This document shows, piece by piece, positions 13,333 through 64,000 of a stretch of DNA of 64,000 nt. A program made the position numbers and the translations under genes. The notes beneath the pieces were generated by a model. The model was given only the letters and a program-made list of their open reading frames with translations, had not been told where the DNA came from and did not search any database. The first letter of the stretch is position 1. Each line of letters starts with the position of its first letter. Source of the stretch: Xestospongia muta (Eukaryota; Porifera; Demospongiae; Haplosclerida; Petrosiidae); assembly GCA_963693285.1 (NCBI GenBank), contig OY848918.1, positions 6,391,876 through 6,455,875 on the forward strand, read 5' to 3'.

Positions 13333-16300
13333 ATGTCTAGTCAACGACTTGTAGCTAAAACTCGAAATGAAGCTATGGATCACTCTTCTACTGTAGCAGA
13401 GGGTCAAAAGTTAACTTCAACCAAAGTTGTATATGATCATCAACATGTTGGAGAACTATTTGGTGTCAAAACCCTTCAGTCAACAGAGGATGTGGCAGCT
13501 ACAGATCTCCCTACTCAATATGAAGGTGACACAACATACACATGAAATAAGTCATGTCTGGGATTGTTATTATATATATATATGGTCTGCTAAAACCCAA
13601 ATAAATTCATGCAGTTGGCTACTTGCCTTGCAGGAAGGTAATACATATATAGCTAATATTTTGGGGGTGGGATCAGTATCATAATACACAATGAAGTATG
13701 GACTTCCTGCCAGACAGATAGCCACTGCCATAAATTTAATATGGTTAACTTTATGAAATTAAGATTGACTTTAACTAAGTATAGTTATCCTGTAGGACAT
13801 TAGTATGTAGACAATATGTTCTGAATCAGTGATATATATAAACTCTATAGCTTTCATGGTGGATTACTATATAATTATGGATGCACAATTAATACGATGT
13901 AGTATAGTTTAACCAATCATTATAGTTGGTATGCTGTACTATTGTACTGCAGGCAGTAGGAAGCCGGACATAGCTCTGAAGTGTGCTGTAAATTTTGAAG
14001 TTAATTAATTTTCATAAGGGTTGTGGCCTTAATTTATGAAATGAAACAATGTCTAGTAGCAATCAGAAAATGAAAGTAGATACGATATTATCGTAATGAC
14101 CAATCATGACACGTAGGTAAACTATAAAATATGTGTGCATTCCATAGTAATCCATCCATATTAGCTATAAATTAGTTCCAATAGTTGCTTCCATTAAGAG
14201 TGCATAATTACAACTTTTTTTGGTATTTCTGTTCTACTGATTCAGAAAATGCTGCCAAGTTGTGGCTTTAAAATGGCTGCCAACTACACTTGTATATGTT
14301 ACTGATTAAATGAAGAAAATTTTACTAGGCAATTGTAATATCTTGTGTCCTTGTAACTTATCAAATGGTACTGTAAAGTTAGTTTTGTCATTTTTCTAAT
14401 AGTGATTTTTATTACTTTATCAATAAGAAGGATAAACTTAATTATGACAACACATCTTTAAGTAGCAGTGGTAATTGGACTCAATTAGGCTGGAATTTGA
14501 GTAGTAGTAGCCACTTAGTAAATACTATTTTGTTTTTCAGGTTTTCCTATTGATCCCAACTACCTCAAAGGACTAATACTCAATCAGTCCAATAAAACAA
14601 AGATACGTCCAGTGTTGTTGTCTCTTGGTGGCATTCCAAAAAGTGGTAAAAGTAAAGCAGTTTCTCATCTTTTGAAACGCTATGTTGATGCAAATTTTTT
14701 TAATCCTATGACAAAAAAGAATGAGAGATCTGAAGGAATCACTTATTATGAACTCATTGCCACTAGTTATCATTCCAAAAGAAATCTCACAATCACTGAA
14801 GTTACTAAAGAGTCCAGTTGTGCATTTGGTATATTATCAGCTTTAAGAAACAAACTTCTAGCAAATGATAAAGTGCCACTCCTAGACATTCCTGAAAGAT
14901 CTCGATACTTTGCTGACCTAGAATTAGATAATCTTCTTTGCCATATGTTCCAATATCTGTATGAATATGAGCATACTCCCAGAGGAAATGAAGTCACTGA
15001 CGATGAACAAGAATATGCTCGACATTTAAACAAGTTCCTTCCAGAAGGCATTGGGTTAATCCACATTTGGGATATAGCCTCTAATAAAATGGTCCTTCAT
15101 TTTTTAAATTCACTACATGGTCTTGTCTATAACAGTCACATGTGGCTCTTTCTAGATATTGAACGAGATCTAAAAAATCTTGAAAAACCACTAAAATTTT
15201 TTGATGAAACAAGAATTGGTGCTTCTAGCAGTGATAGTGGTAGAGCAGATCAATCAGTTTTCGTGAAATGGCGTCCTCGTCTTCATTACTTATTTCGTAC
15301 AAGTAGAATGAGTGAAAGTAAACATGGCCCTAGGATAGGTACGTGTACCATATATGCTAAGCACGAGGGTGCTTATAATGAAGATTTAAAGCAAAGTGTC
15401 AAGAAACTAGAGGGCAAAGTAAAACAAACTGCTAAACAATATGGTATATTTTCTCTCATAGAGCCAAAAATTGAGACCATTAACTTCAACGTCTCTGACT
15501 TTTCTGATGATTCTTCTCTTCATCTTTATCAGAAATTTCAGCAATTAATATACCAGACACCATATGAAAACGTTCCTCTTTCTTGGATATTTCTTCGCAG
15601 TTTGTTTTACCATTCAAGGAAAAAATTCATAGCTAAATCAGAGCTGAGAAAGAAAGCTGAAGAATGTGGTATGGATGATATCTCATTTACAAAGTTTTGT
15701 GAATTCTACACTTCCTTTGGCAGTATATTTGATCTTAGTCTCATTAATCCAGACTATCCCTATGTCATAGTGAAACCAATGGGCTTTCTAAAATCTTTGG
15801 ATAAATTTTTGTGCCCTGATGATAGCACCTGTCAACATTATCCAACATTAATGAACGGTATTATTCCAGAGAAAGCATGCAAAGATGCTTTTGGAGAGAA
15901 TTATTGGTCGGCATATATGGAAGCTTTAATATCTGTCAATTTGGCCACTAAAATACTTAGCTCACAATTAGATGTACCTAATTCTGATCTCGACGATACC
16001 TATTACTTTATCCCTTTAAGTCGCAAAGGAATTTTCGTAATGGAACCTGATCCTTCAGCAGTTCATCTTATTACTGGTATCAATACTCCAGATATTTTCA
16101 CACAGGCCATACTTACTAAGTACCTCTTACGATTGTTGCCAGAACCGAAACTTGTACCATGTAGTAACATTAACAAAACAATTATCAAAGAGTGTTTTAC
16201 TGGTACTATCATCACACTTGTCTCTTACAGTCCTGCTACTAAAATATCTGTCGATCAAGCCAGCCCTGAAATTTGTTCTCTCATTATAAAGGCTTATAAT

Positions 16301-19300
16301 GAGATTGCAAAAATGTGTAAAACTGAAACCCCAAAGTATAAATTTGTAATGATGTGTGCCAAAAGTATAATACCTACTGTAAGAGATATCCCATCTTGTC
16401 AGTATCATGTACTACCAAATGATACACTTTGTGATGAGTGTGTGATAGCTGAAAGAGCTAATGGAAAATTAGTATCCTGGAATGTAGCTTTGAGAACGGT
16501 TAGTAACTGTTTTTGATGTAGTCATTATAAGTGATTGTATTTTTTCAGTACCCAATACCAAGAAAATGTGTACCAAATGAAGGTTAGGTAATTATTTTTT
16601 GTTATAGAGATATTCACTTTTTTGTAGAACTGAAAGGTTCAGAACCAACACAAATTGCCGAAAAAATTACTTCATATTCTTTGGAGGTCATTCCATATCT
16701 TGCTGAAGCACTTCAACTAGACCCATCTCAATGCTCTAGTGTCAGTGCAATGATATCTTCATGGAATAAGAAGCTTGTCAAAAGTAGTCTCACTAATAAT
16801 ATAGAACCAAGACGTATTTTGGCAAGGAAACTTGTGGAGGTGTGTGCTAAGTTGTGTAGTTCATTGGATTATGGCCGTAAAATTGAAGCAGAATTTACTT
16901 TTGAAACACTTGCTAAGGAGTTAGATGTTCATGGTATGTGTACCTAATAAACTATTATAATAATTATATTGCTATATTTATACAGCCCCATCAATCAAAC
17001 AATTGCAAGCTATGGCTCCACATCTAACTGAACAAGGTATTAATAAACCTTTTTGCGATTTTGCTTCTCTCACTTAAAATTATTGTTCCAACCATTAATA
17101 TTTGCAAATAACACAAACAATTTCTTTTTATTTATTGATTTCACACTAACACTTTAACATGTATTTTGTTATTCTAATGGCATCTTGTTTAGTATATGTT
17201 ATCTATAGAATGGCTTCATTTAAGAAGCCTTTGTGACTAATACATACAGTAAATGTCTACTATGTTATAGCCACTGCTACTATGTGCATTATTAGGTTTT
17301 CCATTCAATAATTATAAGATTATCACTATTAAAATATAGTTTGTTGTTTAACTTTGTTATACATGATAACTTAGTATGTATATATGCCTACACATTAAGA
17401 AGTCTGACAATATATACATTAAAACGTTTGGCTAATTAATTGTTGGAACACTAATACTGAGACAATTTTATGCCACAATGATGATTCAATATTGTGGTAT
17501 GTTTTTTTAGCATTCACTAAATTATCTCACATGATATTGCTTTTTAAACAATCACATTGTTTAAATAACCATCAAGTAGTTAACTTAATTTTACTGGGGT
17601 GATGATTCAAGAATATGATGGTTGTTTTGCATTTGTCTTATAGATAATGAAATTACAAGAGATGTCTATGAGAAATACTCTGAAGAGGATGGTGTTATTC
17701 CATTCAAAGCTGTTAAATGGATACTTATCGGACCTCCTCAAGTTGGTAAAACTACAACTAAAATGCGTCTTCTTAACGAGATTCATAACATTGAAAGTGA
17801 AAACATTAATAAAAAACCTGACAGCACAGGAATTGAAAAACCAGTAGAGGTTATGAGCGCTACAATGATTCCTGGAAATGAATCTAAGCATATTTTGTAC
17901 TGGAAAGCATTGAGCGAAGCACAGTTAGATAAAGCTTCACTCTGCTACATCAATTCACAATCAACATTTACTAAAGGGCATTCACCTATTCAAACTCGCA
18001 AGCAATCTCACCTATCTGAATGCATAGATACTATGCTTAAAGAGCCAGCTGAAGATGATGAGAATGATTTTGTGCAAAACAATGGAGACAATATTAAAGA
18101 GGTTTTATCAATGCAATCTCGGAAACGTTCTCGTAACTCAGATTCCTTCGATAGATTATTAAAAAAGCCTACATACTTCGATGAAAATGATTTAGCTCAG
18201 GACTACAAAGGTAGTGTTCAAGAGCACTTCTCAAGTTTTCAGTCTCGAAAACGTTCTCACTCATTTGTTTCCATGACAGTCTTTAAGAAGCCAGCACATT
18301 CTTTTGAAAATGACAAGAACGATTTTCCCCAAAATTACGAAGAATCCCATTTTGATGGTGTTACTATGGATACTGCATGTCTGTCAGATACGTCATCTGA
18401 TATGGAAGTTGATGATTATTCTAATGTTTTACTGGTTTCTGCGCAATTGTCAAAGAAAGAAGAAAAGGGTGCAGTAATGAACTTTATAAAAAAACATTGC
18501 GATGATAAAAACTTTTTAGAACTTTTAGAAGAGGTGAAGGACTCAATATTTGGTAGTACATTTATTTATATTACAGATACTGGTGGTCAACCTGAGTTTC
18601 TTCGCTTACTTCCAGTAATTCTTTCTAAGCCAGCATTTTATTTTGTTTTCTTCAGTTTGGCCCAGTGTCTTGATCAAGCTTATGCTGTACAGTTCACCAA
18701 AGATGGTGAGACTCAAAAGCTTTACCAATCAACCCAAACTATCAAAGAGGTTTTAAGTCAACTATTATCCTCTCTTCATATTCACACAGATGATGAAAAA
18801 TATTCTAAAGTCAAATCAAGAGCGTTATTATTTGGTACTAATGCTGATCATCCTTATAAGGATATAAATGAAATAAATGACGAATTAAAAGAAATTCTTC
18901 CGTCAGATTCAACTTATGTCAGCAGTGTTGAGTCAAAGTTTAAAAATGTTTTTATTCCTGTAAATAACATGAGTGGCACAGAAGATGAAATCATTAGTAT
19001 TAGGCAATATTTTGAAGAGCTTGTCAATGATATTGAGCCTGTTAATATACCTGTTCGTTGGCTTATATTTCATCTTCTACTTCGCAAAAGGTTTAAAGAT
19101 GCTAAAGTCTGTTCTTTGGAGGATTGTGAACGACTTGCTAATAAATGTTCTATTGCTAAACATCATGTAAAAGGAATTATTACCTATATTCATCAACATT
19201 TAGGAACTATTCTCTATTACAGTAAAGTTGACCAAAATGTCATTATATGTGTTCCTGATGTCCTTCTTAAGATTATATCTTGACTCATTTTTGTCTCTGT

Positions 19301-20911
19301 TACTGAAAGTGCAGAGGACAAAAGTACTCATGGTGAAATTCACGAAGATTTTATCAATTCTCTCATGAGAGACAAAGAAACATATGGAATGTTAGATTCA
19401 CAATATGTCATCAAAGTCATGAAGCATTTTCAATTGATGACACAACTCACAGACAAAGATGAGATTTCTAGTGATTGCAATATTAAGGATAGTGCACCAC
19501 TCTTTTTTCCAGGCGTCCTTCGTCCTGACTACAATAATAATATGGCTCCTAGTGATCATGATATTCGTACGACATTACTCATCTCATTTGGAAATGATGA
19601 AATGCCACCTCATTTATTTCAGAACTTGATTGTTGCTCTCAGAGCTCAGGGTATGGAATTGGAATCACGATTAATGTGGACCCTCTCACATGATCATTCT
19701 CACTATAGTGATCATATTTACTTTAACGTTTCGTATTGTAATCAAGAATGGCTTGTTGAGCTCCAGTTAAGGAAACGTGAAACAATGCTGATAGAAGTTC
19801 GTTGTGAACCCACAAAAAATACTTCCAATCAAAGTATACACCATATTGTGTACAAAAACATGAAAAAAGTGTTACATTTGGTTTGTGACATATTTCCTCA
19901 CACTCGTTATCTCAAACCAATGTATGGAGCCTACTGCCAGTTAGATGATGGTCTACATTTCTCTGAATATGATGAAGAAAAATCTAGTTTTTCGTGCAAA
20001 AACTGTGACTGGGATTATAGTCAAGCAATGCATTGGTTTCAACCTTCTGAAGAGGTTTGAATGTCATTCAATTTAATTGATGTTTGATCTGTCATATAGA
20101 TGGATGAAATTCAGACCAAAGATGGTGAGGTTCAATTTGAATCCGCAACCAATGATGCTATAGTTCAGTTTGACTACTTTGTTCCTTTGATAGGTATATA
20201 TATACTATCTATGTTTGTGTTTGTAACAATTAAAACAACATCATTTTATTACCTTACAGATAATCTACCTAATGCCTACATAGCTGGACAGAGACTTTTT
20301 GTTATTCAAGGAGACCTTTTTCAGTCATTTAATTGGGACGAGTGTGGTCTGAGACTGTCTTGTCCTAAAGGAGCTTTATCATCATCAAATGAGAAATGTG
20401 AGGTTGCTATAGTAGCACTAGCTGGTGGTCAGTTTAAACTTCCAGAAAGAACTAAACTAGTTAGTTCTGTATACGCCATCTCGGTTAGCAGGACACTCCT
20501 TAAACCATTGACCTTGGAGTTACAACACTGTGTAGCTTTAGAAACAAAAGCTCAAGCTGACCGTCTCAAATTTGTAAGAGCTTCTGTCTCATACAGAAAA
20601 TTTTCAATAATGGAAGGAAAAGTTTTATCCTGGTAGTTGGTATGGTTCAATTACTCGTTATCACTTTTGCAAATGTGCAATAGTGCAAGAGGAAAACCAG
20701 TCTATTGGACAACATATAGGTATCATCATATTATATATATATATTTAATGCACATAATTCATCATAATGTAGATACTGATCATCAATACGTAACTGCTGA
20801 TCGTATTGCTTATTTTTGCAAAGTATATTATGAAAATGTTGCTTCTTTGGAATGGTCAGTGAAGTTAAGTATTGTGAGACGTCTCAAGGCTCTTGAAGAG
20901 GTACATTTAAG

Positions 20912-20953
<42 letters not shown>

Positions 20954-21826
20954 GTCATTACTTTTCTTAATTTAGTATATGAGACAAAAACATCCTGAAG
21001 CTGTTGCTTATTGCTTTGATACAGTTTTGCCATCAGGAAACTCTTTTAATTTTGTTCTGGACAATAATAAGCCTCCTCAAGGATGGTCTATTTATCAATT
21101 AACTACAAATTCTGAGGTCAGTATATATTATTACAATATTAATTGTTTTATTATTTGCATTCATATTCTTTGTAGTTTGAGTATAAGTTCATTGATAAAT
21201 TTGTAAGTGATGAACTGCCTGAACCACCATCTTGTTCAATGATAATAAAAGCAAAATCAGATGCTGACACAGAAGAGGTTTTTCATTATCCAGTTCCATT
21301 GGATGGTGTTGACAAACCACAGCAGATATTTATTTATTTATCACTGAAAAGTAATAGTGTTTCAACTGCAGGTACACCCGGATGTATTATCTCATACTCA
21401 AATCTACATAATTATATTAATTGTTTTGTAGGTTCTCCAGCTCTTCTAGAAACAGAAAATGTAACTTTTGATGTGGAGAAAGCTAGTAAAATAACAAAAG
21501 AAATTTTAAAGAAACACTTTGCTTCATTGGGTAATCTGTTACACAGAGATCCATTAGAAAAGGTGATACAAAGAATGTATGCAGAAAACCTGGTGTCAGA
21601 GTCTGTCAATAATTCACCAGATTACAAAAACATGATGAGTGAATATAATGTTTTATTGGATATTTGCAGTGATGTTTCTGAGTTTACAGAATACTGTACA
21701 AACTTTATAAGGATTCTTTCCGATCAAGGTGGTCCTTTGCTAAAAATTAGTAACCGAATAGCTGCTGACTGGACTAAGGAAATTGCAAAACAACTTCATG
21801 TAAATTTAAATTTCACTGCTGAATAA
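13333..21826 (+). CDS. Unit D: double Roco protein, pseudo-Roc-COR / Death / Roc-COR / ZU5 / UPA-like / CARD-like (two lesions)
   Basis: Exons 13333-13525, 14541-16498, 16549-16582, 16628-16933, 16986-17036, 17644-20054, 20100-20193, 20260-20719, 20773-20900, 20976-21116, 21176-21371 and 21432-21826; all junctions are phase-compatible, about 2,120 codons. Approximate residues: family N-terminus 1-64; pseudo-Roc (P-loop GGIPKSGKS) and COR-like to 717; Death-like 728-830; 17-residue linker; canonical Roc with G1 GPPQVGKTT (877), G3 DTGGQPEF (1159) and G4-like TNAD (1246); COR from IPVRW (1317); ZU5 about 1690-1800; UPA-like; CARD-like tail. The Roc exon has no ATG before its P-loop, so it must be read as a continuation of the upstream exons. 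Lesions: in-frame TGA 19281-19283 (probably TGG before), and one extra base in the A-run near 20618-20621. Both may be real null changes or sequence errors. Probable role: GTP-controlled death-fold scaffold (inference). Confidence 0.75.
14541..16498 (+). other. Pseudo-Roc-COR module of unit D
   Basis: Open across the whole exon. Block alignment with the second Roc-COR of the same gene: P-loop GGIPKSGKS against GPPQVGKTT; LIHIWDIA against IYITDTGGQPEF; HYLFRTSRM...CTIYAKH against SQLLSSLH...LLFGTNADH; VPLSWIFLRSLFYH against IPVRWLIFHLLLRK; AYMEALISVNLATK and YYFIPLSRKG against VMKHFQLMTQLTD and LFFPGVLRPD; and CQYHVLPNDTLCDEC against C...CKNC. Spacing and order agree throughout. G3 (DxxG) and G4 (N/TKxD) are absent, so GTP hydrolysis is doubtful although nucleotide could still bind the P-loop. 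Confidence 0.7.
17644..20054 (+). other. Canonical Roc-COR exon of unit D with a repeat-bearing Roc insertion
   Basis: G1 near 17730, G3 DTGGQPEF at 18576 and G4-like GTNADH near 18834. G1 and G3 are about 280 residues apart, far more than in ordinary Roc domains. The insertion holds three units starting QTRKQSH (about 17995), QSRKRSR (about 18117) and QSRKRSH (about 18242), each followed by Lys-Lys/Glu-Pro and an acidic Asn-Asp-rich stretch. COR begins at IPVRW (about 19047). The TGA at 19281-19283 sits between two segments of the same open frame; no GT-AG intron that removes it in frame was found. Confidence 0.75.
20100..21826 (+). other. ZU5 - UPA-like - CARD-like C-terminal part of unit D
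   Basis: ZU5 is recognised from GLRLSCPKGAL, QFKLPERTKLVSSVY and KPLTLELQHC (about 20340-20535). After the extra base near 20620 the frame resumes as FYPGSWYGSITRYHFCKC, the strand pattern expected of the region that follows ZU5 in UNC5/PIDD-type proteins. The next exons (SLEWSVKL..., GNSFNFVL..., DTEEVFHYPVPL) form an uncharacterised beta-rich segment labelled UPA-like. The last exon, 21432-21826, is all-helical; its pattern (LLHRDPLEKVIQRMYAENLV, YNVLLDICSDV, FTEYCTNFIRIL) fits a CARD-type death fold. ZU5 is firm, CARD moderate. Confidence 0.65.
20910..20953 (+). repeat. TA microsatellite in a unit D intron
   Basis: An uninterrupted TA run inside the intron 20901-20975. Length is likely polymorphic. 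It does not alter the splice sites. Confidence 0.9.
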
Positions 21827-22788: not shown

Positions 22789-25502
22789 ATGTCCTCTGAT
22801 GATGTTTCTATGACTCCTGGTGGCTTACATAAACCACCTATTAAAGTAGAGAGTAAGGATTTAAGCTCCAGTAAAATGGTGCTTGGCTTTGGAATTGAAA
22901 AAGTTGGTGGTTCATTTGGTGTCTTACCACTTCAGTCAATGAAGGAGTATTCAATGCCAATAGTTTCTCCCACTCCATACGAAGGTACCTTTAATAGTTT
23001 ACTTATTTCAATTATAGGTAATATATTGTTTTGTTTACAGGTTATCCTATTGATCCCAAGTATCTCAAAGAGTTGATATTCAATCAATCAAATACAACCA
23101 AAATACGTCCAGTCTTGCTGTGTTTTGAAGGCCATCCAGACAGTGGTAAAACAAGGGCAGTCTCTCATCTTTTGGACAACTACATTGATTCAAGTCCCTT
23201 TCAACCCATGACAAAGAAAAGTGAGAGGTTACAAGCAGTAGGAATCACCTATTTTGAGATCGTTGCTGCTGGATTCTATCCTTTGAAAAAACTCACCATC
23301 ACTGAAGTTACTAAAGAGTCCAGTTGTGCATTTGGTATTCTATCAGCTTTTAGAAAAGAGCTTTTGCAAAATCATAAAGTACCTCTCTTCAATTATGATT
23401 CAAAAGGGCCAATTTCTAGTTTCGAAGATCACGAACTAGAAGGTCATCTTCAATACATATTCAGCTATATTTGTCAATATGAACACACTCCTAAAGGTAC
23501 AACGGTCACCCCTAAAGAACAAGAGTATGCTGCACAGCTAAAGGAGTTACTTCCAGAAGGTATTGCCCTTATTAACATTTGGGATATTGCCATCAACAAA
23601 ACTGTACATTACTTCTTAACTTCACTATGTGGTCTTCTTTATAACAGTTATATGTGGCTTTTCATGAATATGGATCAAGATTTGGAAAACCTCGACAAAC
23701 CTCCAGAAATCCTTAACGAAACTACCAGAGTTGCAGTTACTACAAACCGTAGTGATAATGGAGAACACTCATTTCTCATGAAATGGCGTCCTCGTCTTCA
23801 TTACTTGCTTCGTTCAAGTAGAATGAGTAAAAGTATACATGGTCCCAGAGAAGGTGTGTGTACTATATTTGCCAAGCACAGTGGTACTTACAATGAAAAT
23901 CTAAAGTTGAAAGTCTCAGAGCTTGAAATCAAAGTAAAGCAAACTGCTAAACATATTGGTGTGTCTTCTCTTATAGAGCCAAAAATTGAAATTATTGATT
24001 TTGAGTGTAGTGATCTTGATGATAACTCTCTTCGTCTTTATCAAAACTTCCAACAGGTTATCTGCAAAACACATTATAAAGATGTTCCTCTCTCCTGGAT
24101 CTTTCTTCGCAGTCTATTTTACAGATCACAAAAAAAATTTATAGCTAAATCAGAACTTCGAAAAAAGGCTGAAGAATGTGGTATGGATGATGAGTCACTT
24201 ACAAAGTTTTGTGAGTTTTATACTTCTTTTGGAAGTATATTTGATCTTAGTCTTGTGAATCCAGACTATTCTTATGTTATAGTAAACCCAATGGGTTTTT
24301 TGAGAACTCTGGACATGTTATTATACCCTGAGGATAGCATTTGTCAAAAGTATCCATCAATAGTGAATGGCATTGTCCCAGAAAAAGCTTGCAAGGAAGT
24401 TTTTGGAGAAAGCTGGCTGGTCTTTATGGAAGCCTTAGTATCTGTCAATTTGGGCACAAGAGTGTCTAGTTCACACATAGATATATCTGATCTTGATCCC
24501 ACTGATATATACTACTTTATCCCTTTAAGTCGCAAAGGTAATCTTATAATGGAAGCTGATCCCACAGCAGTTCATCTTATCATTAATATCGATGCTCCTC
24601 ATGTCTTTCAGCAGACAACCTTCACCAACTCCCTCTTGAGATCATTGCAAAAGCCAAAGCTTGTACAATGTGATAATCCTAATCAAACCATCATTACAGA
24701 GACTAATACCGGTATTACTGTCACACTTGTTTCTCATAGCCCGGCTACTAAAATATCCATCAGCCAAGCCAATCCTGATGTTTGCTCTTTCATTCTCAAA
24801 GCTTATGGCAAAATTGCAGATAAATGTAAAATTGGGACTACAAAATATAAATTTGTTATGATTTGTGCCAAAAGTGGAGTTCCTGACGTACGATATATCC
24901 CATCTTGTCAGTATCACATTCTACCAGATGACGAGCTCTGTGATGAGTGTAAAAAAGCTGGGCGTGTTAATGATCAGTTAAAAGCCTGGAACAAAGCATT
25001 GAGAGAGGTTGGTGACATTGCATATAACTTAATGTTTATCCACTTTTATTTTAATTTTAGTATTTTAATACACAATGGGTACCAGTCCAGGGTAAGTATT
25101 AAATTTCTAGTTATAGACAATGAACATGTATTTCTTTCTTTAATAGAATTAAAACCCTCAGAGCTCAGTTACATTGCTGAACAGATTGCATCATGTGATC
25201 CAACTGTTATTGCCAAAACACTTGGGCTAGCCAAAGATATGTCTCGATTTGAAGGTTTTAAAGGAGAAAAACTTATTATTGAAATGTTGTTAGCTTGGGA
25301 TAAAGATTTTACAAAGCATTCACAAGCAGAGCCCAAACGAGAGTTAGCAAGAAAACTACTCGAGCTCGGTAATGAGTTACCTCAACAGAAGATTGATTTT
25401 GAGAACCTGGCAAGAGAACTGGATATTTATGGTATTCAATTAATATATAAATTATTATCCCTTGAACCAATTTCTTTTTTCTCTGTAGCACCATTGTTAT
25501 AA
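22789..25502 (+). CDS. Unit E: intact pseudo-Roc-COR-Death protein (830 aa)
   Basis: Exons 22789-22984, 23041-25007, 25061-25091, 25147-25431 and 25489-25502; 2,493 nt, open throughout. Residues 1-65 are the family N-terminus (VGGSFGVLP...TPYEG). The P-loop GHPDSGKT is at 96-103, the degenerate G3 block NIWDIAINK near 244, a FAKHSG block where G4 would lie near 343, COR-like VPLSWIFLRSLFYR near 414, and the CQYHILPDDELCDEC knuckle near 688-702. Then comes a ten-residue micro-exon and a Death-like domain about 732-826 (ELSYIAEQIASC, LARKLLELG, LARELDIYG). Tail APLL. Start chosen at the ATG shared with C and F. Cytosolic; no signal peptide or membrane segment. Likely a signalling adaptor or regulator related to Roco proteins (inference). 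Confidence 0.88.
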
Positions 25503-33233: not shown

Positions 33234-35975
33234 ATGATGGATCATGATGTCCATGATGTTTCTATTGGAGCAGCCATATATGAGTCACCTATTGATGAAG
33301 AAAGCAGGGAGCCAGCTTCTTCAGCTCAATTGATATCTGGTCTTCAACAAATTGGAGGATTATTTGATATCAAACCTTTTCAGGGAATTAAAGAATCCAC
33401 TGAAGCTACTACTCCATATGAAGGTAAAAGCCTGCCCTTCTTTGACACATAAAAATTATACCTTAGATATGTGTCATAGCTACGTTTATTTTCCTCATCA
33501 GGTTATTCTATTGATTCCAATTACATCAAAAAGGTAATATGCAATCAATCCAATAAAGCCAAAATACGTCCAGTTTTACTGTCATTTGGCGGCATTCCAG
33601 AAAGTGGTAAAACAAGAGCAGTATCGTATCTTTTAGACAATTATGTTGATTCAAGTCCCTTTGTACCCATCACAAAGAAAAATGAGATGAAATTAGGAGC
33701 AGATGGAATCACTTATTATGAACTGGTAGCTGCTGGATTTCATCCATTGAGAGAACTCACTATCACTGAAGTCACTAAAGAGTCCAGTTGTGCTTTCGGT
33801 ATTCTGTCAGCATTTAAGGTAGAGCTTTTGGTAAATGGCCTGGTACCACTCTTCAACTTTAATACTAAAGAATCTACCCACATTTTTGGTGATCCTGAGT
33901 TAGATGATCATCTTAGCCATATATTTAATTACCTGAGTCAACGTGAGCATACTCCTACTGGTTCTGAGGTGACATATAATGAGCAACAATATGCTAGACG
34001 TTTAAAGAAGCTGCTTCCAGAAGGAATTGCACTAATCAACATATGGGATATTGCCATTAACAGAATAGTACTTCACTTTATGACTTCATTACGTGGTCTT
34101 CTTTATAACAACCATACTTGGCTGTTCCTGGACATTGAGCGAGATCTACAAAATCTTGAAAAACCACCGGAAATTCCTGAAGGAAATCATGAAGCTTCTT
34201 TCAGTAGAGATGGGTCAGTTCTTATGAAATGGCGTCCTCGTATTCATTATTTGTTACGTTTTAGTAGAATGAGTGAAAGTAAGTATGGTCCCAGGAAAGG
34301 TGTGTGTACTATATTTGCTAAGTACACAAGCACTTGTAAAAACTTAGAGCAAAAAGTTGTAGAGCTTGAAGATAAAGTAAAGCAAACTGCTAAACACATT
34401 GGTGTGTCTTCTCTTATAGAGCCTCAAATTGTTACAGTCAATTTTAATAGCTCTGATATTCATGATGATCAATCTCTTCATCTTTATCAGAAGTTTCAAC
34501 AGGTTATCTACCAGACACCATATGAAGATGTACCTCTCTCATGGGTATTTCTGCGAAGTTTGTTCTTCAGGTTACAAAAGAAATTCATATCGAAATCTGA
34601 GCTAAGAGAGAAAGCTAAAAAATGTGGTATGGATGAGGACTCCTTTACCAAATTTTGCCAGTTTTATACATCCTTTGGTAGTATATTTGATCTTAGTCTT
34701 GTTAACTCAGGTTATCCCTATGTCATAGTGAAACCAATGGGATTTCTAAATTCTTTGGATAAGTTTTTATGTCCTGATGATAGCACCTGTCAGCAGTACC
34801 CAGAGTTAGTGAATGGTATCATCCCTGAGAAAGCGTTCAAAGAGGTCTTCAAAGAGGACAGGTTAGCATTCATGGAAGCCTTATTATCTATCAATCTAGC
34901 CACCAAAGTGCCTAGTTCGCAGTTAGATATATCTGATCTTGATCCCAATGATACATACTACTTTGTCCCTTTAAGCCGCAAAGGTGATCCTGTAATGAAA
35001 GCTGATCCTACAGCAGTTCATCTCATTACCAGTATCAATACACCACATGTCTTCAAACAAGCCACATTTGCTAAGCACCTCTTACAATCATTGCAAGAAC
35101 CAAAACTCGTACCATGTGGTAACATTAACCAGACGATTATCAAAGAGTGTTCTACTGATACTACCATTTCTCTGGTCTCTCATAGTCCTGCTACTAAAAT
35201 AGCTATCAATCAAGCCAGTCCTGAAGTCTGTTCTCTCATTGTTAAAGCTTATAACGAGATTGCGGAAACATGTAAAATTGGAACTACAAAATATAAATTT
35301 GTCACAATATGTGCCAAAAGTGGAGTTCCTGATGTACAAGATATTCCATCTTGTCAGTATCATGTACTACCAAATGACACACTCTGTGATGAGTGCGAGA
35401 AAGACTTAAGAATTAATGATCAGTTAAAAGCCTGGAATGAAGCTTTGAGAAAGGTCAGCAATTCTCTTATTTGCGATTAAGTTGTAAAGTTTATTGATTC
35501 CTCCTTACTTTTATGTAGCATCCTGTTCCTTTAAAAAGTATACCTGATAAAAGTAAATATTGTTTTTTATTTAATTAGTCATGAAAATATCATTATTCTA
35601 TACAATAGAAGTAAAGATAACAGAGCTAGCCTACATTGCTGAAAAGATTGCTTCATGTGATCCAACTGTTGTTGCTAAAACACTTGGGTTCCAGGATTTG
35701 ACTCCATTTCAAGAAACAGAAAGGGAGAGGCTTATTAATGAAATGTTACTTGTCTGGAGCAGAGGAGACCAGTCACACATTGAACCCAGACAGGAGCTAG
35801 CAAGGAAACTACTAGAGTTAGATACAAAGTATAATGGAGTACAAGAACAGAAGCCTGACTTTAAAGCTCTTGCACAAGAACTAGATATTCACAGTATGTT
35901 TTCTGTACTATCCCATAATATGTTTATATTCATTCTTTCTTATCTGTAGTGCGACCTACAAATCCAGTGAACTAG
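33234..35975 (+). CDS. Unit G: intact pseudo-Roc-COR-Death protein (828 aa)
   Basis: Exons 33234-33423, 33502-35453, 35519-35552, 35609-35893 and 35950-35975 sum to 2,487 nt without an internal stop. Two ATGs (33234 and 33237) lie right after a likely 5'-UTR acceptor; the first is used here. N-terminal motif IGGLFDIKP...TPYEG; P-loop GGIPESGKT; INIWDIAIN in the degenerate G3 place; VPLSWVFLRSLFFR opening the COR-like half; CQYHVLPNDTLCDEC near its end. The Death-like exon reads ITELAYIAEKIASC...LARKLLELDTKYNG...LAQELDIH; tail MRPTNPVN. The large exon is open from its acceptor, but its first ATG is at 33687, so translation must come from exon 1. The 3' end was copied downstream of H (39450, 40020). 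Confidence 0.88.
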
Positions 35976-48798: not shown

Positions 48799-49565
48799 TC
48801 AGAATTTGAAACAATTTACATTCTTGCTACTTTACTAAATTTAGTATATGAAATTTGGCTTCCTCTTTATCATCTGAGAGTTTTCAATTTGTTTTAAAGA
48901 AGTAGTATCAAAGACAATTGGATGTGTAATGTTGGATTAGTTATAATCAAGAAGGTCAGAGATTTAGTATAGATTGGTATACTTTGTTAAGCTTTATATG
49001 GAACCTGATTAGTTTGAGAAATAGATTAGATTCAATGTCAATGCATATTTGTTGACAAATAATATCTGCAAGCTTTATTCATAGTATTTGTTTATCTGAT
49101 GTATGTATTACACATGCAATGGTCGAGCAGCTCTTGTCTCAGCAGATTTATATAGCATTCATCACAGTCCAGGAGATTGCTTGTGAATGCACTTAACTAT
49201 TGGGACAGCTGAAGTGGACCAGAAAACATTATTGAGCATTAATGAAATGAAGGTGTATTCATTTTTATATGCATATTCTGCTACTACAAGAAACAGTTGA
49301 TAGAAATGAAGGTGATCAAAGCTTTGTGTTTTGTTTTCAATGTTACAGAATCAGTATATAGAAACCTCTCATTGAATAAATCCTTAACTTCTTAGCAAAC
49401 TACACCAACTCAATCCACCTGCTTCAGCATTATAATTTTAGTAGCTATACTATGAGTCTTAAATTGACTCCTCTCACGTGTGATTTTCTAAGTAGATATC
49501 TCAGTTCTGATTTGTGCTATCAGATGGTGCTGGCATAAATTTCTTCTTCGTAGTTATATAGACCT
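48799..49565. other. Intergenic J to minisatellite
   Basis: AT-rich. No coding exon, RNA gene or array repeat recognised. Confidence 0.6.
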
Positions 49566-56600: not shown

Positions 56601-59600
56601 AATTCCTCCTCTATTTTTTACAATAGTTATGTAGCCACATCAATGTAAACATATTAGTCTATTCCATCTTCTATGATCATGAATAAGGTCACTTCCTATA
56701 TACCAATGGCCAATGTGGAAGATGTAGTACCACAATATTATCTGGTAGGAAGTCAATTTCACTCAATGAATTTCTATGTATACAACATGCAAACTATACT
56801 ACATTTGAATCAACACTTTGTAGAGGATAGGATATACTTTGACATAATAGTTAATGGACAATTCTTGTAAAGGATATTATTAGTGTGGATTTATGTTAAT
56901 TGGTGGTGGTAGACTTCCTCATAACATGGGAAACCAGTGGCAGTAGAGGCAAAATTAAATTTTATCTTAACTGATTAACATATTGCCTCACTGATCAATG
57001 ATATTATGATACAAATCTCAATCCAAAGAATATTCCATATTATTAAACTACATGGGAAGTTGAGAAAGTAGATCAACAACATGCATTTGTTATTACTACA
57101 ACTTATACTTACTACCAACAGCACAAATTGGCAACAAACCTAATGCATTAGTTAAGAACATACCCATAACTATTGTATTAATATTTCTGTAATGTGTAAC
57201 ATTACAAATTATTATGAATTATTTCTTTATTTGCATAATTTTACAGGCTTTCCATTTGATCATGAACATCTCAAAGAACTGATATCCAATCAAACGAATA
57301 TGACCAAAATTCGACCAGTTTTTCTTACTTTGAATGGTCTTATGAATTCTGGTAAGACAGAGGCAATTTTATATTTTTTAAAGCACTATGTTGATCAACG
57401 TCCACATCCTACATTGTTGGGTAAAAGTTATGACCAAGAAACAGAAGGAATTGCATGTTATGAACTTTTTGCTGCTGGTTTCTATCCCTTAAGGCATCTT
57501 ACCATTGCTGAATTCCCCAATGAGTCTGCTTGTGCATTTGGTATATTGTCAGCCTTTCGTAAAATAATTCAATTTCACAAGAGAGTTCCTTTGTTCAAAA
57601 AGGACCTTGATTTACCTACCAATGACGTTTTCAAAGATTCAGATTTAGAAAATCATCTTCAATATTTATACAAGTACCTTTGTCAATGTGAACAAGTGCC
57701 AAAAGAAGCTGATTTCAGCAATAATGAATATCTATTTGCTGATCATCTTTGCAAATCACTTCCCAGTGGAATTGCTCTTGTTAACATTTGGGACCTTTCC
57801 TTAGACAAGACAGTTCAGTGTTTTTTAACTCCTTTCTTTGACCTATTTTACAACAGTCATGCTTGGCTATTTCTAGATATTAAGCCTGAAGGTAACCTTC
57901 CTCATGTCACAGAAATTACTCCAGATGGTACAGCTTGGCTCCAACCTCATCTTTATTACTTGCTTCATTGGAGTAGAATGAGTGAAAGTAATCCAAGGGA
58001 GGGTGCAAGCACCATCTTTGCTAGACATGTCATGACCACTTCAAATGAACATTTAAAACAAATGGTCACAACACTTGAAGTTAAAGTAAAACAAGCTACC
58101 AAACATATTGGTGTGTCTTCTCTCATAGAGTCAAAAATTGAGACCATTGAGTTAAGCGATCATGGGATTTCTAATGATGCGTCAAATCGTCTTAATCAAA
58201 AGTTTGAAAAGGTGATTTATGAAACACCATTTGAAGATGTTCCTCTCTCTTGGCTGTTTCTTCGTAGTTTGTTCTATAGATTGGAGAAGATATTCATAGC
58301 CAAGTCAGAACTAAGGAAGAAAGCTAATGAATGTGGCATCAATGATGACTCACTAGCTAAATTTTGCCAATACTATACTTCCTGTGGCAGTATACTTGAT
58401 CTTAGTCTTATTAAACCAGATTGTTCATATGTAATTTTGAAGCCAATATGTTTTTTGAAATTGTTGGATAAAATTTTATGTCCTGGCGAGCACCTCTGTC
58501 AACAGTATCCAACCTTAGTTTATGGCATCTTACCAGAAAGAGCATTTCAAAATGTTTTTGGAGAGAATTGGCCAGCATTTGTAGATGCTTTATCAATCCA
58601 TCTGGCTACAACAGTGCCTAGTTCACAGTTAGACATACTTAATCTTGATTCCAATGAGCTGTTTTACTTTATCCCTTTAAGTCGCAAAGCAGAGAACCTC
58701 ACAAAAGAAGCTGATATGGCAGCAGTTCATCTCATAGTCAATACTCCTCATGTAAATCTCATTCAACATGCAATTCCTTTGCTAATTACCTATTACAATC
58801 ATTACCAGAACCAAAGCTCGTACCATGTTGTAACTTTAACCAAATGATTATCAAAGAATGTTCTACTGGTAGTACAATCACTCTCATCTCTCATGGTCCA
58901 GTTACTACAATATCAGTCAGCCAAGCTAGCCCTGATGTTTGTTCTTTAATTGTTGAAGTCTATAATAAGATTGCAGAAACTAGTAAAGTCAGAATTAAAT
59001 ACAAATTTGTCAAGATATGTTCAAAAAGTTTAGTCGCTGATATACAAGATATTCCATCTTGTCAGTATCATGTACTACCAAATGACACACTTTGTGATGA
59101 GTGTGTGTTAGCTGGGAGAGTCACTGACCAGTTAAAAGCTTGGAATGAAGCATTGAGAGAGGTTAGTAAAATGTATTCATTTACTAATAATTTTATGTTT
59201 TATATAACAGCACCCAATTCCTAGAAATTGTATACCAAATGAAGGTTAGATGGATTAACTTTCCTATATAGAGTCATTAATGAATCCTTACATTTTGCAG
59301 AACTAAAAGGTTCGGAACCTACACAAATTGCTAAAGAGCTTTCTTCATACACTCCAGAGGTGGTCAAGTATCTTGCTGAAACACTAGAGATTCATGATGT
59401 TCAGACTTCTAGTGTTAGTGAACTGATTTCCATATGGAATAAGAAACTTGTCAAAAGTACTAGTAGTAGCACAGGAGAAAGAGAACCAAAACGAATGTTG
59501 GCAAGGAAACTGGTTGAGGTTGGTGCTAAATTTTGCACTTCATTAGATAGTGGTCGAAAATTTGAGGCAGAATCTACTTTTGAAGCACTTGCTAAGAAAT

Positions 59601-61317
59601 TAGATGTTTATGGTAAATACAGTGATTATAAGTACATTGACCTTTTATGTCTTAATTTGTAGCTCCAACTATTAAACAATTTCAAGCCATGACTCTTCAT
59701 ATGATTGAGGAAGGTAATTTACAAAACATTATCTTGGCTGTCACACCTTACCATTAAAACAAAAATGTTTATTTATGTAATTATATTAATATATTTTTTG
59801 TAGATAACCATATTTCTAGAGATGTCTATGAGAAATACTCTCAAGAGGATGGTGTTATTCCATTCAAAGCTGTTAAATGGATCATTGTTGGACCACCTCA
59901 AGTTGGTAAAACTACCACTAAAATGCGTCTTCTTAAGCAAATTAAAAACATACAAAGTGAAGGTGGTAATGTAAAACCTGATAGCACAGGATTAGAAAAA
60001 CCTATAGAAGTTATGAGTGCCACAATCATTTCTTCTGATGACACTGACAACAGTTTGTACTGGAAAGCCTTAACTGTGTCACAGTTAGATCAAGCTTTGA
60101 TGTGCTACATCAATTCACAACCTGCATTCACTACAGAAACTTTATCTTGTCAGACTCACAATGAATCTCATATGCCTGATTACATAAATACATTGTCAAC
60201 AGAGCAAGATGAAATGGATGTTTTTGCCCTAAACAATAAGGAAGAGTATTTATCATTGCAATCTCGCAAGCGTTCCCATACTTTTGACTCCACAGACACA
60301 AATATTAAGAAACAAGCACACTCTTTTGAAAATGATGACAATGATCTCTCTCAATATTGCATACCATTCCCAGAGAGTGCACGTGATAAAGAAGAATTAC
60401 CAATATTTCAATCTCGCAAGCGTTCTCATTCACCTGATTCTATAGCAAATACAATAATTAAGAAACAGGCAATTTTTTTTGATTCTGAAAATGATGAAAA
60501 TGAGTTTCCCCCAAACAGCACAGAATCGCTAAAGTACAGTTCCACATATAGTGAATATCAGACAGAAGAGTCTGATAATATGGAAATTCAGCATTCCTTA
60601 CTATTCATGAGAAACGAGAGGAATGTATCATCAATAGTAATGAATTTTATTAAAAAACAATGCAATGATAAAGACTTTTTTAGTCTTTTTAAAGAGGTGA
60701 AAGACTCAGTGTCTAGTAGTACATCCATTTATATTACAGATACTGGTGGTCAGCCTGAGTTTCTTCGTTTACTTCCAGTAATTCTTTCTAAGCCAGCATT
60801 TTATTTTGTTTTCTTCAGCTTGGCTAAACAACTAGATCTAAAACACCCTGTAAACTTCACCAAAGATGGTGAGACTCAAACACTCTATCACTCGACACAA
60901 ACTGTCAAAGACATTTTGAGTCAATTGCTATCCTCTCTTCATATTCCAATATCATGTGATGAAGAGCATTCTAAAGTCAAATCAAGAGCATTATTATTTG
61001 GTACTAATGCTGATCATCCTTATAAGAATGTAGATGAAATAAGTGATGAATTAAAAGAGATTCTTCCATCAGATTCAACTTATGTCAACAGTATTGAGTC
61101 AAAGTTTAAAACCATTTTTATTCCTGTAAATAACATGAATGGCACAGAAGATGAAATCATTAGTATTAGACAATATCTTGAAGAGCTTGTCAATGATATT
61201 GAGCCTGTTAATATACCTGTTCGTTGGCTTATATTTCATCTTCTGCTTCGCAAAAGATTTAAAGAAGCCAAGGTCTGTTCTTTGGAAGATTGTGAACGAC
61301 TTGCTAAGGAATGCTTT
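53674..61317 (+). pseudogene. Unit K: second double-Roco gene, frameshifted and cut by an LTR retrotransposon
   Basis: Exons 53674-53839, 57247-59161, 59211-59244, 59301-59612, 59663-59713 and 59804 onward. The plan equals unit D: N-terminus of J type (SIAAIIGVVP...PIQLQG), pseudo-Roc P-loop NGLMNSGKT, COR-like VPLSWLFLRSLFYR, Death-like exon, 51-nt linker exon, canonical Roc (G1 GPPQVGKTT, G3 DTGGQPEF near 60739, TNADH) and COR (IPVRW). The G1-G3 insertion again has QSRKRSH repeats (about 60260 and 60413). A 2-nt gain near 58775 shifts frame in the first COR-like part. At 61317, in the COR winged helix (SLEDCERLAKEC), a Ty3/gypsy LTR begins. The remaining COR, ZU5 and CARD exons, if present, lie beyond the window. 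Confidence 0.85.
53840..57246 (+). repeat. Long first intron of K with a roughly 1-kb tandem triplication
   Basis: Three related blocks begin near 54190, 55110 and 56160. Each carries a GTGTTGAAAA...TTTTGTAAA...TTGTT region, then ATAGTGAATAGTGTCATTCCATG (about 54533, 55551 and 56453), then a CAAAGTAAACT/TCCTCC-rich part. The third copy is shortened. Nothing coding. A small open frame at 56673-56870 has no recognisable similarity. Confidence 0.65.
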
Positions 61318-61551: not shown

Positions 61552-64000
61552 TTAGAAAGTAGGGTGATAACGATCAATGGGCGCACGACTTCTCTTGGAA
61601 TACCTTGTAGGTCCTTTTGTCTTGTCATTAGAAATCGTAATATTCCTATCGGATGTTACAGTCGAATCTGTAGTACACGGATTTGGTTGGATTGTCTCTT
61701 CAAGCTGTACAGGTTCCATCTCCTGCATCTCTTCTGATTGATTATTGGTTTCTTCCATTTGATCAGTTGTAGTTTGTTCTTCATTTATTCCTCCAGGCAT
61801 TGTCAGTGGATCCATACTCTCTTCACCTTGCGGTCTACTAAAACTTTCATTTTTATTTTCCTGTGTTTTGTTGACAATCACATGGTCAATATGCCTTCTC
61901 CATATCCTTCCATCAGTCAATTCGATATTTACTACGTTTCTTCCCTCTTTACTTACTATTTTGCCTGGTAACCATTTGTTTCCAGACCCAAAATTATGAG
62001 CCATTACTCTCTCTCCAATATTCAAATATATAGGTTTCTGATTTCGAACAAAATGTTTCTCTTTCTGATTTCTTGCTTTCTGGTGGTTTGTTGGATACAA
62101 AAGGTCTAAATGTGTTCTTATCCTCCTTCTCATTAGCAATTCAGCTGGTGCAGTACCCGTAGTACTTTGGGGTGTCACTCTGTATTTTAACAAGAAACGT
62201 GGAATTCTTGTTTCTAATGGACCCTCCATCTTTCTCAGTCCCTTCTTTACTGTTTTGACAGCACGCTCTGCCAATCCATTCGAAGCTGGGTGATATGGAG
62301 GTGTGAACATATGTCGAATTCCATTTCGTTGCATGAACTCTTTAAATTCTTGACTCGTAAAAGCCGGACCATTGTCAGACACTAGTACTTCAGGGAGACC
62401 GTGTGTAGCAAAAACTGTTCTCAATTTCAAAATAGTAGATTCGGAGGAAGTTGATGGTACACTGAAAACTTCAAGCCATTTTGAGTAGGCGTCAATAATG
62501 ATTAGCAGGGTTTTACCCATAAATGGTCCTGCATGATCCACATGTAGTCGTGTCCATGGCTTCTCTGGCCACTTCCATGCTTGCACTGGTCTTGCTGGAG
62601 GCATTTCCTTTTCTTGTTGACACTTTATACAATCATGTGCTTGTTTCTCCAAATCTATATTCAAAGACGGCCACCACACATAACTCCTGGCAAAATATTT
62701 CATTTTGACAATTCCTGGATGGCCTTCATGAATTTCTTGTAGTACATGTTGTCTCAGCTGATGTGGTATGATAACTCTAGTACCCCATAAGAGACAGCCA
62801 TCCTCAACACTTAACTCATCTTTTCTCTGCTTATACGGTGCTATGTCTTTACTGGTAATGTTTTCTGGCCAGCCCTGTAGGACATATTTCTTAACCTTTG
62901 ACAAAACTATGTCTCTCTCAGTATAAGAATTAACTTGGGATACTGATACTAAGGAATTATCCAGTCTTTCCATAAGTAGTATAGTCTCAGCTGGCTTGGG
63001 TACGTGTTTGAGTGTTGTTGGTAATGGAAGTCTGCTAAGACCATCAGCATTTCCAATGTTTTTACCGGGACGATATTTAATAGAGTAGCAATAGCCACTT
63101 AATGTTAGTGCCCATCTCTGAACTCTGGCAGAGGCAGTTGCTGGAATTCCTCGATTTTCTCCGAATAAATACATTAACGGTTTGTGATCTGAATAAATGG
63201 AAAATGTGCGACCATACAGATATTGGTGGTACCGTTTCACTCCGAATACAATAGCAAGTGCTTCTTTGTCGATTTGCGAATATCTTTTTTCAACAGGTGT
63301 GAGAGCTCGAGAAACATAACTGATAGGACGCTCAGTTCCATCTTCCATTTGGTGAGCTAATACCGCTCCCACTCCTACTGGTGAGGCATCACACGATAAT
63401 ATTAATGGCTTTGAACAATCATAATGAACAAGTAGATTAGGTGACTGCAAAAATGACTTAGCTCGTATGAAGGCATCATCTTGTTCTTTCGACCAACTCC
63501 ATGACACATTTGTCTGCAACAACTTATAGAGAGGTGACAAAATAGTTGACATATTTGGTATAAATTTACTGTAATAGTTAATTAAACCTAGGAATGCTTT
63601 TAATTGAGATCGATTTGTTGGCCTAGGTGCATCACTTATTGCTCTAACCTTTTCATCTGTGGGTTGGAGTCCTTCTTTACTTATTTTGTGTCCAAGATAC
63701 TCAACGCTGGGAAGTAAGAACTGACACTTGGACTTCTTTAACCGCATTCCAGCTCTTTCTAATCTTGTGAGAACCTCATCTAGCGTCTTAAGATGTTCCT
63801 CCTCAGTACACCCTGTGATCAAGATGTCGTCAATATAAACTGCTACGTGCTCTAGTCCTTGCAGTAGATTCTCCATTGTTCGCTGGAATATGGCAGGGGC
63901 AGAGGAGACTCCAAAAGGCAACCTATTATACTCATAAAGACCTTTGTGAGTGTTTATGACCAGGTACTTCTTCGCAGTCTCATCTAGGCTCAATTGAAGA
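61552..64000 (-). CDS. Ty3/gypsy pol: reverse transcriptase, RNase H, integrase (5' part outside window)
   Basis: An open frame of at least 813 codons read right to left. Reverse transcriptase with LPFGVSSAPAIFQ and the active-site box YIDDILITG; the TLDEVL...LGHKIS thumb region; RNase H with LSCDASPVGVGAVLAHQ, DKEALAIVFG and YSDHKPL; integrase zinc box (HEGHPG...CIKCQQ); and core triad in HVDHAGPF, VSDNGPAFTS and NGLAERAVKT. The C-terminal tail is Glu/Thr-rich and ends near the LTR. Gag, protease and the first part of the reverse transcriptase are beyond the right edge. The open frame and crisp LTR tips suggest a fairly young insertion. Interrupts unit K. Confidence 0.93.
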   Translation of the reverse strand, partial: LQLSLDETAKKYLVINTHKGLYEYNRLPFGVSSAPAIFQRTMENLLQGLEHVAVYIDDILITGCTEEEHLKTLDEVLTRLERAGMRLKKSKCQFLLPSVEYLGHKISKEGLQPTDEKVRAISDAPRPTNRSQLKAFLGLINYYSKFIPNMSTILSPLYKLLQTNVSWSWSKEQDDAFIRAKSFLQSPNLLVHYDCSKPLILSCDASPVGVGAVLAHQMEDGTERPISYVSRALTPVEKRYSQIDKEALAIVFGVKRYHQYLYGRTFSIYSDHKPLMYLFGENRGIPATASARVQRWALTLSGYCYSIKYRPGKNIGNADGLSRLPLPTTLKHVPKPAETILLMERLDNSLVSVSQVNSYTERDIVLSKVKKYVLQGWPENITSKDIAPYKQRKDELSVEDGCLLWGTRVIIPHQLRQHVLQEIHEGHPGIVKMKYFARSYVWWPSLNIDLEKQAHDCIKCQQEKEMPPARPVQAWKWPEKPWTRLHVDHAGPFMGKTLLIIIDAYSKWLEVFSVPSTSSESTILKLRTVFATHGLPEVLVSDNGPAFTSQEFKEFMQRNGIRHMFTPPYHPASNGLAERAVKTVKKGLRKMEGPLETRIPRFLLKYRVTPQSTTGTAPAELLMRRRIRTHLDLLYPTNHQKARNQKEKHFVRNQKPIYLNIGERVMAHNFGSGNKWLPGKIVSKEGRNVVNIELTDGRIWRRHIDHVIVNKTQENKNESFSRPQGEESMDPLTMPGGINEEQTTTDQMEETNNQSEEMQEMEPVQLEETIQPNPCTTDSTVTSDRNITISNDKTKGPTRYSKRSRAPIDRYHPTF

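What the first reader, a model, noticed from the sequence alone, without database searches (positions are those of the whole stretch)
13333..21826. A single gene joins pseudo-Roc-COR, Death and a second full Roc-COR-ZU5-CARD-like chain
In D the Death exon leads through a 51-nt linker exon in matching phase into the canonical Roc exon. No stop or terminal exon intervenes, and the Roc exon has no in-frame ATG before its own P-loop. K repeats the arrangement with the same linker length and phases. Two Roc-COR units in one chain, one apparently dead, suggests intramolecular dimerisation, since Roco COR domains normally dimerise between chains. I know of no described protein with this order.
Basis: partly seen in the sequence, partly recalled or inferred. 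Interest (0 to 1): 0.87.

Follow-up and report, generated by a model that had tools for sequence, protein, structure and literature searches.

The report
Fused double-Roco gene in sponge array
A sponge-like genome carries a family of genes in which a degenerate signalling switch, a death-type domain and a second, normal-looking switch appear to be read as one very long protein, although the two copies first noticed here are themselves broken.

Summary
The gene model is real in outline. The same joint occurs at 8 loci of a ~240-kb tandem array. Linkers of 51, 48 and 45 nt all keep frame; in copy F2 the introns around the linker are only 50 and 60 nt. In the short relatives I read, the exon at this place is the last one and carries a stop, so the fusion looks derived: a terminal exon lost its stop and was spliced to a downstream Roc-COR-ZU5 gene. 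But D and K are both broken: D has an in-frame TGA in its second COR and a frame change in its ZU5 exon; K has a frame change in its first COR and breaks off in its second beside a retroelement. Of 9 loci with both units, 3 (F2, F4, F7) are open through both. The first Roc keeps its P-loop, lacks recognisable G3 and G4, and is under purifying selection. No transcripts were available; intramolecular COR pairing remains inference.

The parts
13333..13525 (+). D exon 1 (MSSQRL...; ends phase 1)
   Evidence: ATG-open, donor GT at 13526; 98% identical in near-copy F1
14541..16498 (+). D exon 2: first (degenerate) Roc plus COR; P-loop GGIPKSGKS kept, G3 place reads IWDIASNK
   Evidence: COR-A below cut-off in paralogue G, E 0.0036; Roco COR chains among structural matches of a poor model
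16549..16582 (+).
   Evidence: read from the sequence; same exon seen in F1, F2, F4, K, F7, F9
16628..16933 (+). D exon 4: Death-like domain
16986..17036 (+). D linker exon, 51 nt, phase 1/1 (APSIKQLQAMAPHLTEQ)
   Evidence: resembles the terminal exon of short-class genes
17644..20054 (+). D Roc-COR exon (P-loop GPPQVGKTTT, DTGGQ), with a long insert between G1 and G3
   Evidence: open homologue F2 scores COR-A E 8.4e-8
19281..19283 (+). in-frame TGA in the second COR of D; sense codon in the 8 other copies compared
20100..20193 (+). exon before ZU5 in D
20260..20719 (+). ZU5 exon in D, frame change near 20615-20620 (also in F1)
   Evidence: PF00791 22.2 bits, cut-off 21; frame change
20773..21826 (+). 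remaining D tail exons (UPA-like and death-fold-like by eye)
57247..59161 (+). K first Roc-COR exon, frame change near 58775-58808
59211..59244 (+). K 34-nt exon
59301..59612 (+). K Death-like exon
59663..59713 (+). K linker exon, 51 nt, phase 1/1
59804..61317 (+). K second Roc and start of COR, broken off
61552..63999 (-). retroelement stretch (reverse transcriptase, RNase H, integrase; Ty3/gypsy-like by domain order, recalled) after the break in K; runs off the window
25489..25502 (+). coding end of the terminal exon of short-class gene E (APLL*), at the place of the linker

Best explanation
A tandem array of pseudo-Roc-COR-Death genes contains a derived sub-family in which the former terminal exon lost its early stop, gained a splice donor and was joined to a downstream Roc-COR-ZU5-(UPA/CARD-like) gene. 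The result is one chain: pseudo-Roc-COR, Death-like, linker, Roc-COR, ZU5, tail. Shown by sequence: the joint, its phase, its recurrence, a homologous terminal exon in relatives, constraint on both halves, and open frames through both Roc-COR units in F2, F4 and F7. Inferred: that it is transcribed as one mRNA. Inferred more weakly (my estimate about 0.3): that the two COR units pair within the chain, the first acting as a built-in, non-cycling partner that sets when the second Roc releases the death-fold and ZU5 tail, in an immune or cell-death pathway. D and K are decayed members.
For: Eight loci with the same in-frame Death-linker-Roc joint; linker 51/48/45 nt; canonical sites at 8 of 8; introns of 50 and 60 nt in F2; linker identity 0.56-0.80 between four lineages (6 pairs) against 0.35-0.52 and 0.06-0.38 in the introns before and after it. 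Death exons of seven fused loci form one clade, support 1.000, in a tree of 24 of 30 Death hits. Relatives end at this place, including the 7.08-Mb outgroup whose last exon resembles the linker, and Amphimedon P0071, P0075 and P0110 end just after the Death-like part. dN/dS is 0.14-0.45 for the first unit (13 of 26 units translated) and 0.34-0.49 for the second (27 of 28 pairs of 8 of 10 copies, broken ones included). Open through both units: F2, F4, F7, 3 of 9. Unit 6467909 has the Death-like exon followed in frame by the end of COR-B and the ZU5 part, another fusion after the same exon.
Against: No transcript or protein of the fused form was seen; a search with the F2 chain gave no hit at E 0.001 among 5427 candidates of similar length, although the same database holds relatives of each half. 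Six of 9 loci are broken. The linker has an in-frame ATG in 8 of 8. F10, a Roc copy without the first half, sits inside the fused copies in the Roc tree (with F2, K, F9, support 1.000; 9 of 10 copies), so it either lost its first half or the fusion is not a single event. F2 has no identified first exon, its first P-loop reads SAKT, and one intron in its UPA-like part had to be read through to keep frame. F4 and F7 were held only as far as the ZU5 exon.
Confidence: 0.7

Rival explanations
1. Two neighbouring genes: the Death-like exon or the linker ends the first, and the Roc part has its own promoter and starts at the ATG inside the linker.
For: In-frame ATG in the linker of 8 of 8 copies; short-class relatives end here; Roc-COR copies with other upstream parts exist: F10 and the C13 ankyrin-Roc-COR-Death genes.
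Against: Only 50 and 60 nt of intron flank the linker in F2; the linker resembles the last exon of the upstream gene, keeps its acceptor and phase and has no stop in 8 of 8; unit 6467909 joins the Death-like exon in frame to the ZU5 part with no linker ATG.
Confidence: 0.15
2. Both forms are made from one gene: a short protein when the linker donor is not used and the long fused one when it is spliced. This overlaps with the best explanation rather than excluding it.
For: If the donor is unused, the frame closes after 1 to 14 further residues in 8 of 8 copies; ending here is the likely ancestral state.
Against: No isoform data; the nearby stop may be a relic.
Confidence: 0.3
3. The fused copies are non-functional by-products of unequal recombination in the array and make no working protein.
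For: Six of 9 loci are broken, D and K included; near-identical blocks, mosaic first halves and a direct deletion in F8 show recombination.
Against: Three loci remain open through both units and dN/dS is below 0.5 in both halves; linker length changes keep frame.
Confidence: 0.15

Closest known systems
Roco family (LRRK1/2, DAPK1, bacterial CtRoco)
   Same: A Roc followed by COR; the second unit has COR-A E 8.4e-8; the COR part of the first unit has Roco COR chains among its structural matches at middling Z. Roco COR domains mediate dimers (passages of PMC6337361).
   Different: Two Roc-COR units in one chain, the first without recognisable G3/G4; no LRR and no kinase in the pieces scanned.
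DAPK1-type Roco (Roc-COR plus death domain, metazoa only; PMC6337361 passages)
   Same: Roc-COR combined with a death-type domain.
   Different: The Death-like domain sits between two Roc-COR units; no kinase seen; ZU5 present.
Sponge pseudo-Roc-COR-Death proteins such as Amphimedon P0071, P0075, P0110
   Same: Same first half, 49, 48 and 39% identity to paralogue G, ending just after the Death-like part; P0075 is named Death domain-containing by UniRef.
   Different: They stop there; no second Roc-COR.
Ankyrin-Roc-COR-Death genes on C13 of this genome, and Halichondria panicea P0036 (ankyrin, Roc, COR-A)
   Same: Their Roc-COR is a relative of the second unit (31% identity for C13; 25% over half the query for P0036).
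   Different: Ankyrin repeats come first, not a pseudo-Roc-COR; no ZU5 in the pieces scanned.
PIDD1-type ZU5-UPA-death proteins (recalled; ZU5/FIIND autoproteolysis in passages of PMC8195603)
   Same: ZU5 followed by a UPA-like and a death-fold-like tail, by eye.
   Different: Roc-COR upstream; UPA and CARD not recognised by Pfam here.

Membership tests
Roco (second unit) | G1 and G3 motifs of a Roc GTPase | tested here: met
   GPPxVGKT and DTGGQPEF invariant in 5 of 5 aligned sequences; Pfam Roc itself stays below its cut-off
Roco (second unit) | COR domain directly after Roc | tested here: met
   COR-A E 8.4e-8 in F2 at the right place, 32.7 bits against a cut-off of 35.3; 3dpt and 3dpu are the top two of 9 PDB rows by profile, E 0.007, the next rows unrelated at E 0.02
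Roco (first unit) | G1 P-loop | tested here: met
   G-x4-GK[ST] in 24 of 26 units translated (of at least 32 found); F2 changed, u6290 not covered
Roco (first unit) | G3 DxxG | tested here: not met
   The place reads WDIAINK and variants, no glycine
Roco (first unit) | G4 [NT]KxD | tested here: not met
   The aligned place reads FAKH in 4 of 8 and near variants in the rest; hhalign sets it against the TNAD stretch of the second unit, E 0.0014 but probability 17.6%
Roco (first unit) | COR domain | tested here: inconclusive
Death domain | death fold or Pfam Death match | tested here: inconclusive
ZU5 | Pfam ZU5 above cut-off | tested here: met
   D piece 22.2 bits against 21; but the F2 tail gives 17.8, below cut-off
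CARD | Pfam or PDB sequence match | tested here: inconclusive
   none; resemblance by eye only
DAPK1-type Roco | kinase before Roc | tested here: not met
   No kinase match in the pieces scanned; D exon 1 (64 aa) was not scanned
Roco dimer | COR-COR pairing | not testable with these tools
   model of the first unit too poor

The most novel reading that the evidence does not exclude
A Roco protein that carries its own partner: a nucleotide-binding but non-cycling pseudo-Roc-COR pairs in cis with an active Roc-COR, and the death-type domain held between them is released when the pair opens. It arose by stop loss and splice capture in a fast-evolving array, which has produced at least one more fusion after the same exon (Death straight to ZU5).
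Probability: 0.3. Interest if true: 0.8.

Novelty: new variant of a known kind. Interest (0 to 1): 0.58.

Why it matters
How Roco proteins pair, and what controls it, is an open question for LRRK2 (PMC6337361 passages). A chain with two Roc-COR units, one apparently unable to cycle, would be a natural tethered heterodimer in which each half could be tested. The array also preserves likely steps by which a terminal exon became a linker and made a new multidomain protein.

Tried and rejected
Retrocopy test: the degenerate Roc copy at C2:14.57 Mb (L020) might have been a processed copy proving a spliced fused mRNA, but it aligns to F9 and F2 through their introns and starts inside the Roc exon, so it is a DNA duplicate. 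Structure of the first unit: mean pLDDT 41.6 from 6 aligned window sequences, so its matches carry little weight. Death model: Foldseek gave nothing at E 0.001. The profile of the first unit found no Roco structure in the PDB by sequence. A protein search with the F2 chain found nothing at E 0.001. A guanine deaminase-Roc fusion at F10 was considered: phases fit, but the deaminase frame also closes soon by itself, so it is left as a lead. The first Death query was in the wrong frame; the K Death peptide in the same call replaced it. Papers: searches showed, by titles and abstract starts, nothing describing two Roc-COR units in one chain; PMC8201809 and PMC6320773, which hold the terms 'two Roc-COR' and 'two COR domains', were not opened. 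Only passages of PMC12408332, PMC6337361, PMC11378527 and PMC8195603 were read. The library is open-access only. The species was not identified.

Full report
Place. The window is C2:6391876-6455875 of a 158-Mb genome with 28 contigs. It lies in a tandem array. A search with one first-unit exon (G, 33498-35456) found at least 32 units, some in pieces, between C2:6.285 and 6.507 Mb, all on the + strand (68 of 177 candidates were scored). A search with D's Roc exon found 10 second-unit copies between 6.299 and 6.522 Mb (80 of 637 candidates scored). The relatives that carry a species name are sponge proteins (Amphimedon queenslandica, Halichondria panicea), so a sponge is likely; the species was not identified.

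The joint. For 8 loci I located the end of the Death-like exon, the linker and the start of the Roc exon. All 8 have canonical acceptor and donor sites, and all 8 read from Death through the linker into Roc in one frame without a stop. The linker is 51 nt at five loci (F1, D, F2, K, F9), 48 nt at two (F4, F7) and 45 nt at one (F3), so length changes keep the frame. The introns before and after it are 50 and 60 nt in F2, 50 and 90 in K, 52 and 607 in D. Between four lineages (D, F2, F3, F4; 6 pairs) identity is 0.56-0.80 in the linker, 0.35-0.52 in the preceding intron and 0.06-0.38 in the following one.

Origin. In short-class genes of the array the Death-like exon is followed at the same place by an exon that soon ends, for example APLL* in E, APSLKIN* after 6292927 and ARL* after 6362983. 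At C2:7.08 Mb, outside the array, it reads ALTIKQIRCIRE*, much like the linker APTIKQLQAMTPHMTEE. Amphimedon gene models P0071, P0075 and P0110 also end just after the Death-like part. The fused form is therefore most simply derived. Death exons of seven fused loci (F3 left out as partial) form one clade with support 1.000 (24 of 30 Death hits used). The first 300 residues of the first unit, however, put F2, K and F9 with the J class (0.999) and D, F1, F4, F7 together elsewhere (1.000; 25 of 26 units used). dS tells the same: D-F2 is 1.13 in the first unit and 0.55 in the second, F2-F4 1.12 and 0.69. First halves have probably been exchanged. In the Roc tree (9 of 10 copies) F10, which lacks the first half, sits with F2, K and F9 at support 1.000, so either it lost its first half or the fusion happened more than once.

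State of the copies. By tblastn of the F2 chain against each held stretch: F2, F4 and F7 are open through both Roc-COR units. D has one stop in the second COR, where the 8 other copies compared have a sense codon, and a frame change in the ZU5 exon that F1 shares. F1 also has a frame change in the second Roc. K has a frame change in the first COR, and its second COR stops matching at window 61317, beside a reverse-strand reverse transcriptase-RNase H-integrase stretch. F9 has 6 stops in the first unit. F3 lacks part of the first COR and of Death and has a stop in the second unit. F8 has a deletion that runs the first unit into Roc, out of frame by reading the sequence. F4 and F7 were held only as far as the ZU5 exon; F2 has no identified exon 1 and needs one intron read through in its UPA-like part.

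Constraint. Pairwise dN/dS was 0.14-0.45 for the first unit (78 pairs of 13 of the 26 units translated) and 0.34-0.49 for the second (27 of 28 pairs of 8 of 10 copies, the broken D, K and F8 and the unfused F10 among them; one pair was identical). For the Death exon 19 of 21 pairs lay between 0.27 and 0.80, one was 0 and one 1.45, on few changes. The degenerate Roc is thus a constrained protein part, not debris.

What the second unit is. GPPxVGKT and DTGGQPEF are invariant in 5 aligned sequences. F2 gives COR-A at E 8.4e-8. ZU5 passes its cut-off in D but not in F2. The tail resembles UPA and a CARD by eye only. Elsewhere in the genome, on C13, related Roc-COR genes have ankyrin repeats in front and a Pfam Death domain behind.

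One gene or two. The linker's ATG, present in 8 of 8, keeps a separate downstream start possible. Against it stand the tiny introns in F2, the likeness of the linker to the upstream gene's last exon, and unit 6467909, where the Death-like exon is followed in frame by the end of COR-B and the ZU5 part. A short isoform is also possible, since the frame closes after 1 to 14 residues if the linker's donor is not used. A protein search with the F2 chain found no fused relative, while each half alone found 36 and 101; many of those with source ENA look like single-exon gene calls, so the absence is weak.

How it may work. Roco proteins pair through COR (passages of PMC6337361). A chain holding one apparently non-cycling and one active Roc-COR could pair within itself and expose the death-type domain or the ZU5 tail on a nucleotide change. 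This is inference; nothing here tests it.

Print. Nine listings showed no report of two Roc-COR units in one chain; the library is open-access only and two papers with suggestive terms were not opened, so this is weak.

Noticed in passing
G000 C2:6467909-6471353 (L060): A pseudo-Roc-COR-Death gene runs in frame into the end of COR-B and the ZU5 part with no Roc in between: another fusion after the same exon.
   Followed up: partly
L010 270-1560 (C2:6519351-6520642): The Roc copy F10 follows the only place found for a guanine deaminase-like piece (NCBIfam E 6.4e-18 on a partial stretch), with phase-1 sites and an unrelated 39-nt linker-like exon; a deaminase-Roc fusion is possible.
   Followed up: partly
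window 18000-18320 and 60240-60480: The insert between G1 and G3 of the second Roc repeats a QSRKRS...KK motif (two basic clusters), nuclear-signal-like by eye; untested.
   Followed up: no
window 49485-51071: A tandem repeat with a 42-nt period (34 placements listed), inside an open frame of 505 aa made of a repeated 14-aa unit such as ILIEECDFNNHVLR.
   Followed up: no
C2:6494283-6495220 (F8): A deletion joins the middle of a first unit directly to the Roc exon; its Roc exon shows no difference from that of F7 at the codons compared.
   Followed up: partly
C2:6285387-6317288 and window 197-35456: Several units recur nearly identically 107-110 kb apart (F1 and D; 6304858 and E; 6315330 and G; 6285387 and A), pointing to a block duplication; A carries a stop that its twin lacks.
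   Followed up: no
P0068 (JGI, contig 2912 bases): An 845-aa relative with a first exon, the first unit, an equivalent of the 34-nt exon and a Death-like part in one open frame, so perhaps a cDNA; it would support splicing of the short form.
   Followed up: partly
P0117 (Amphimedon queenslandica): A relative with a Pfam Death domain at the start, before the pseudo-Roc.
   Followed up: no
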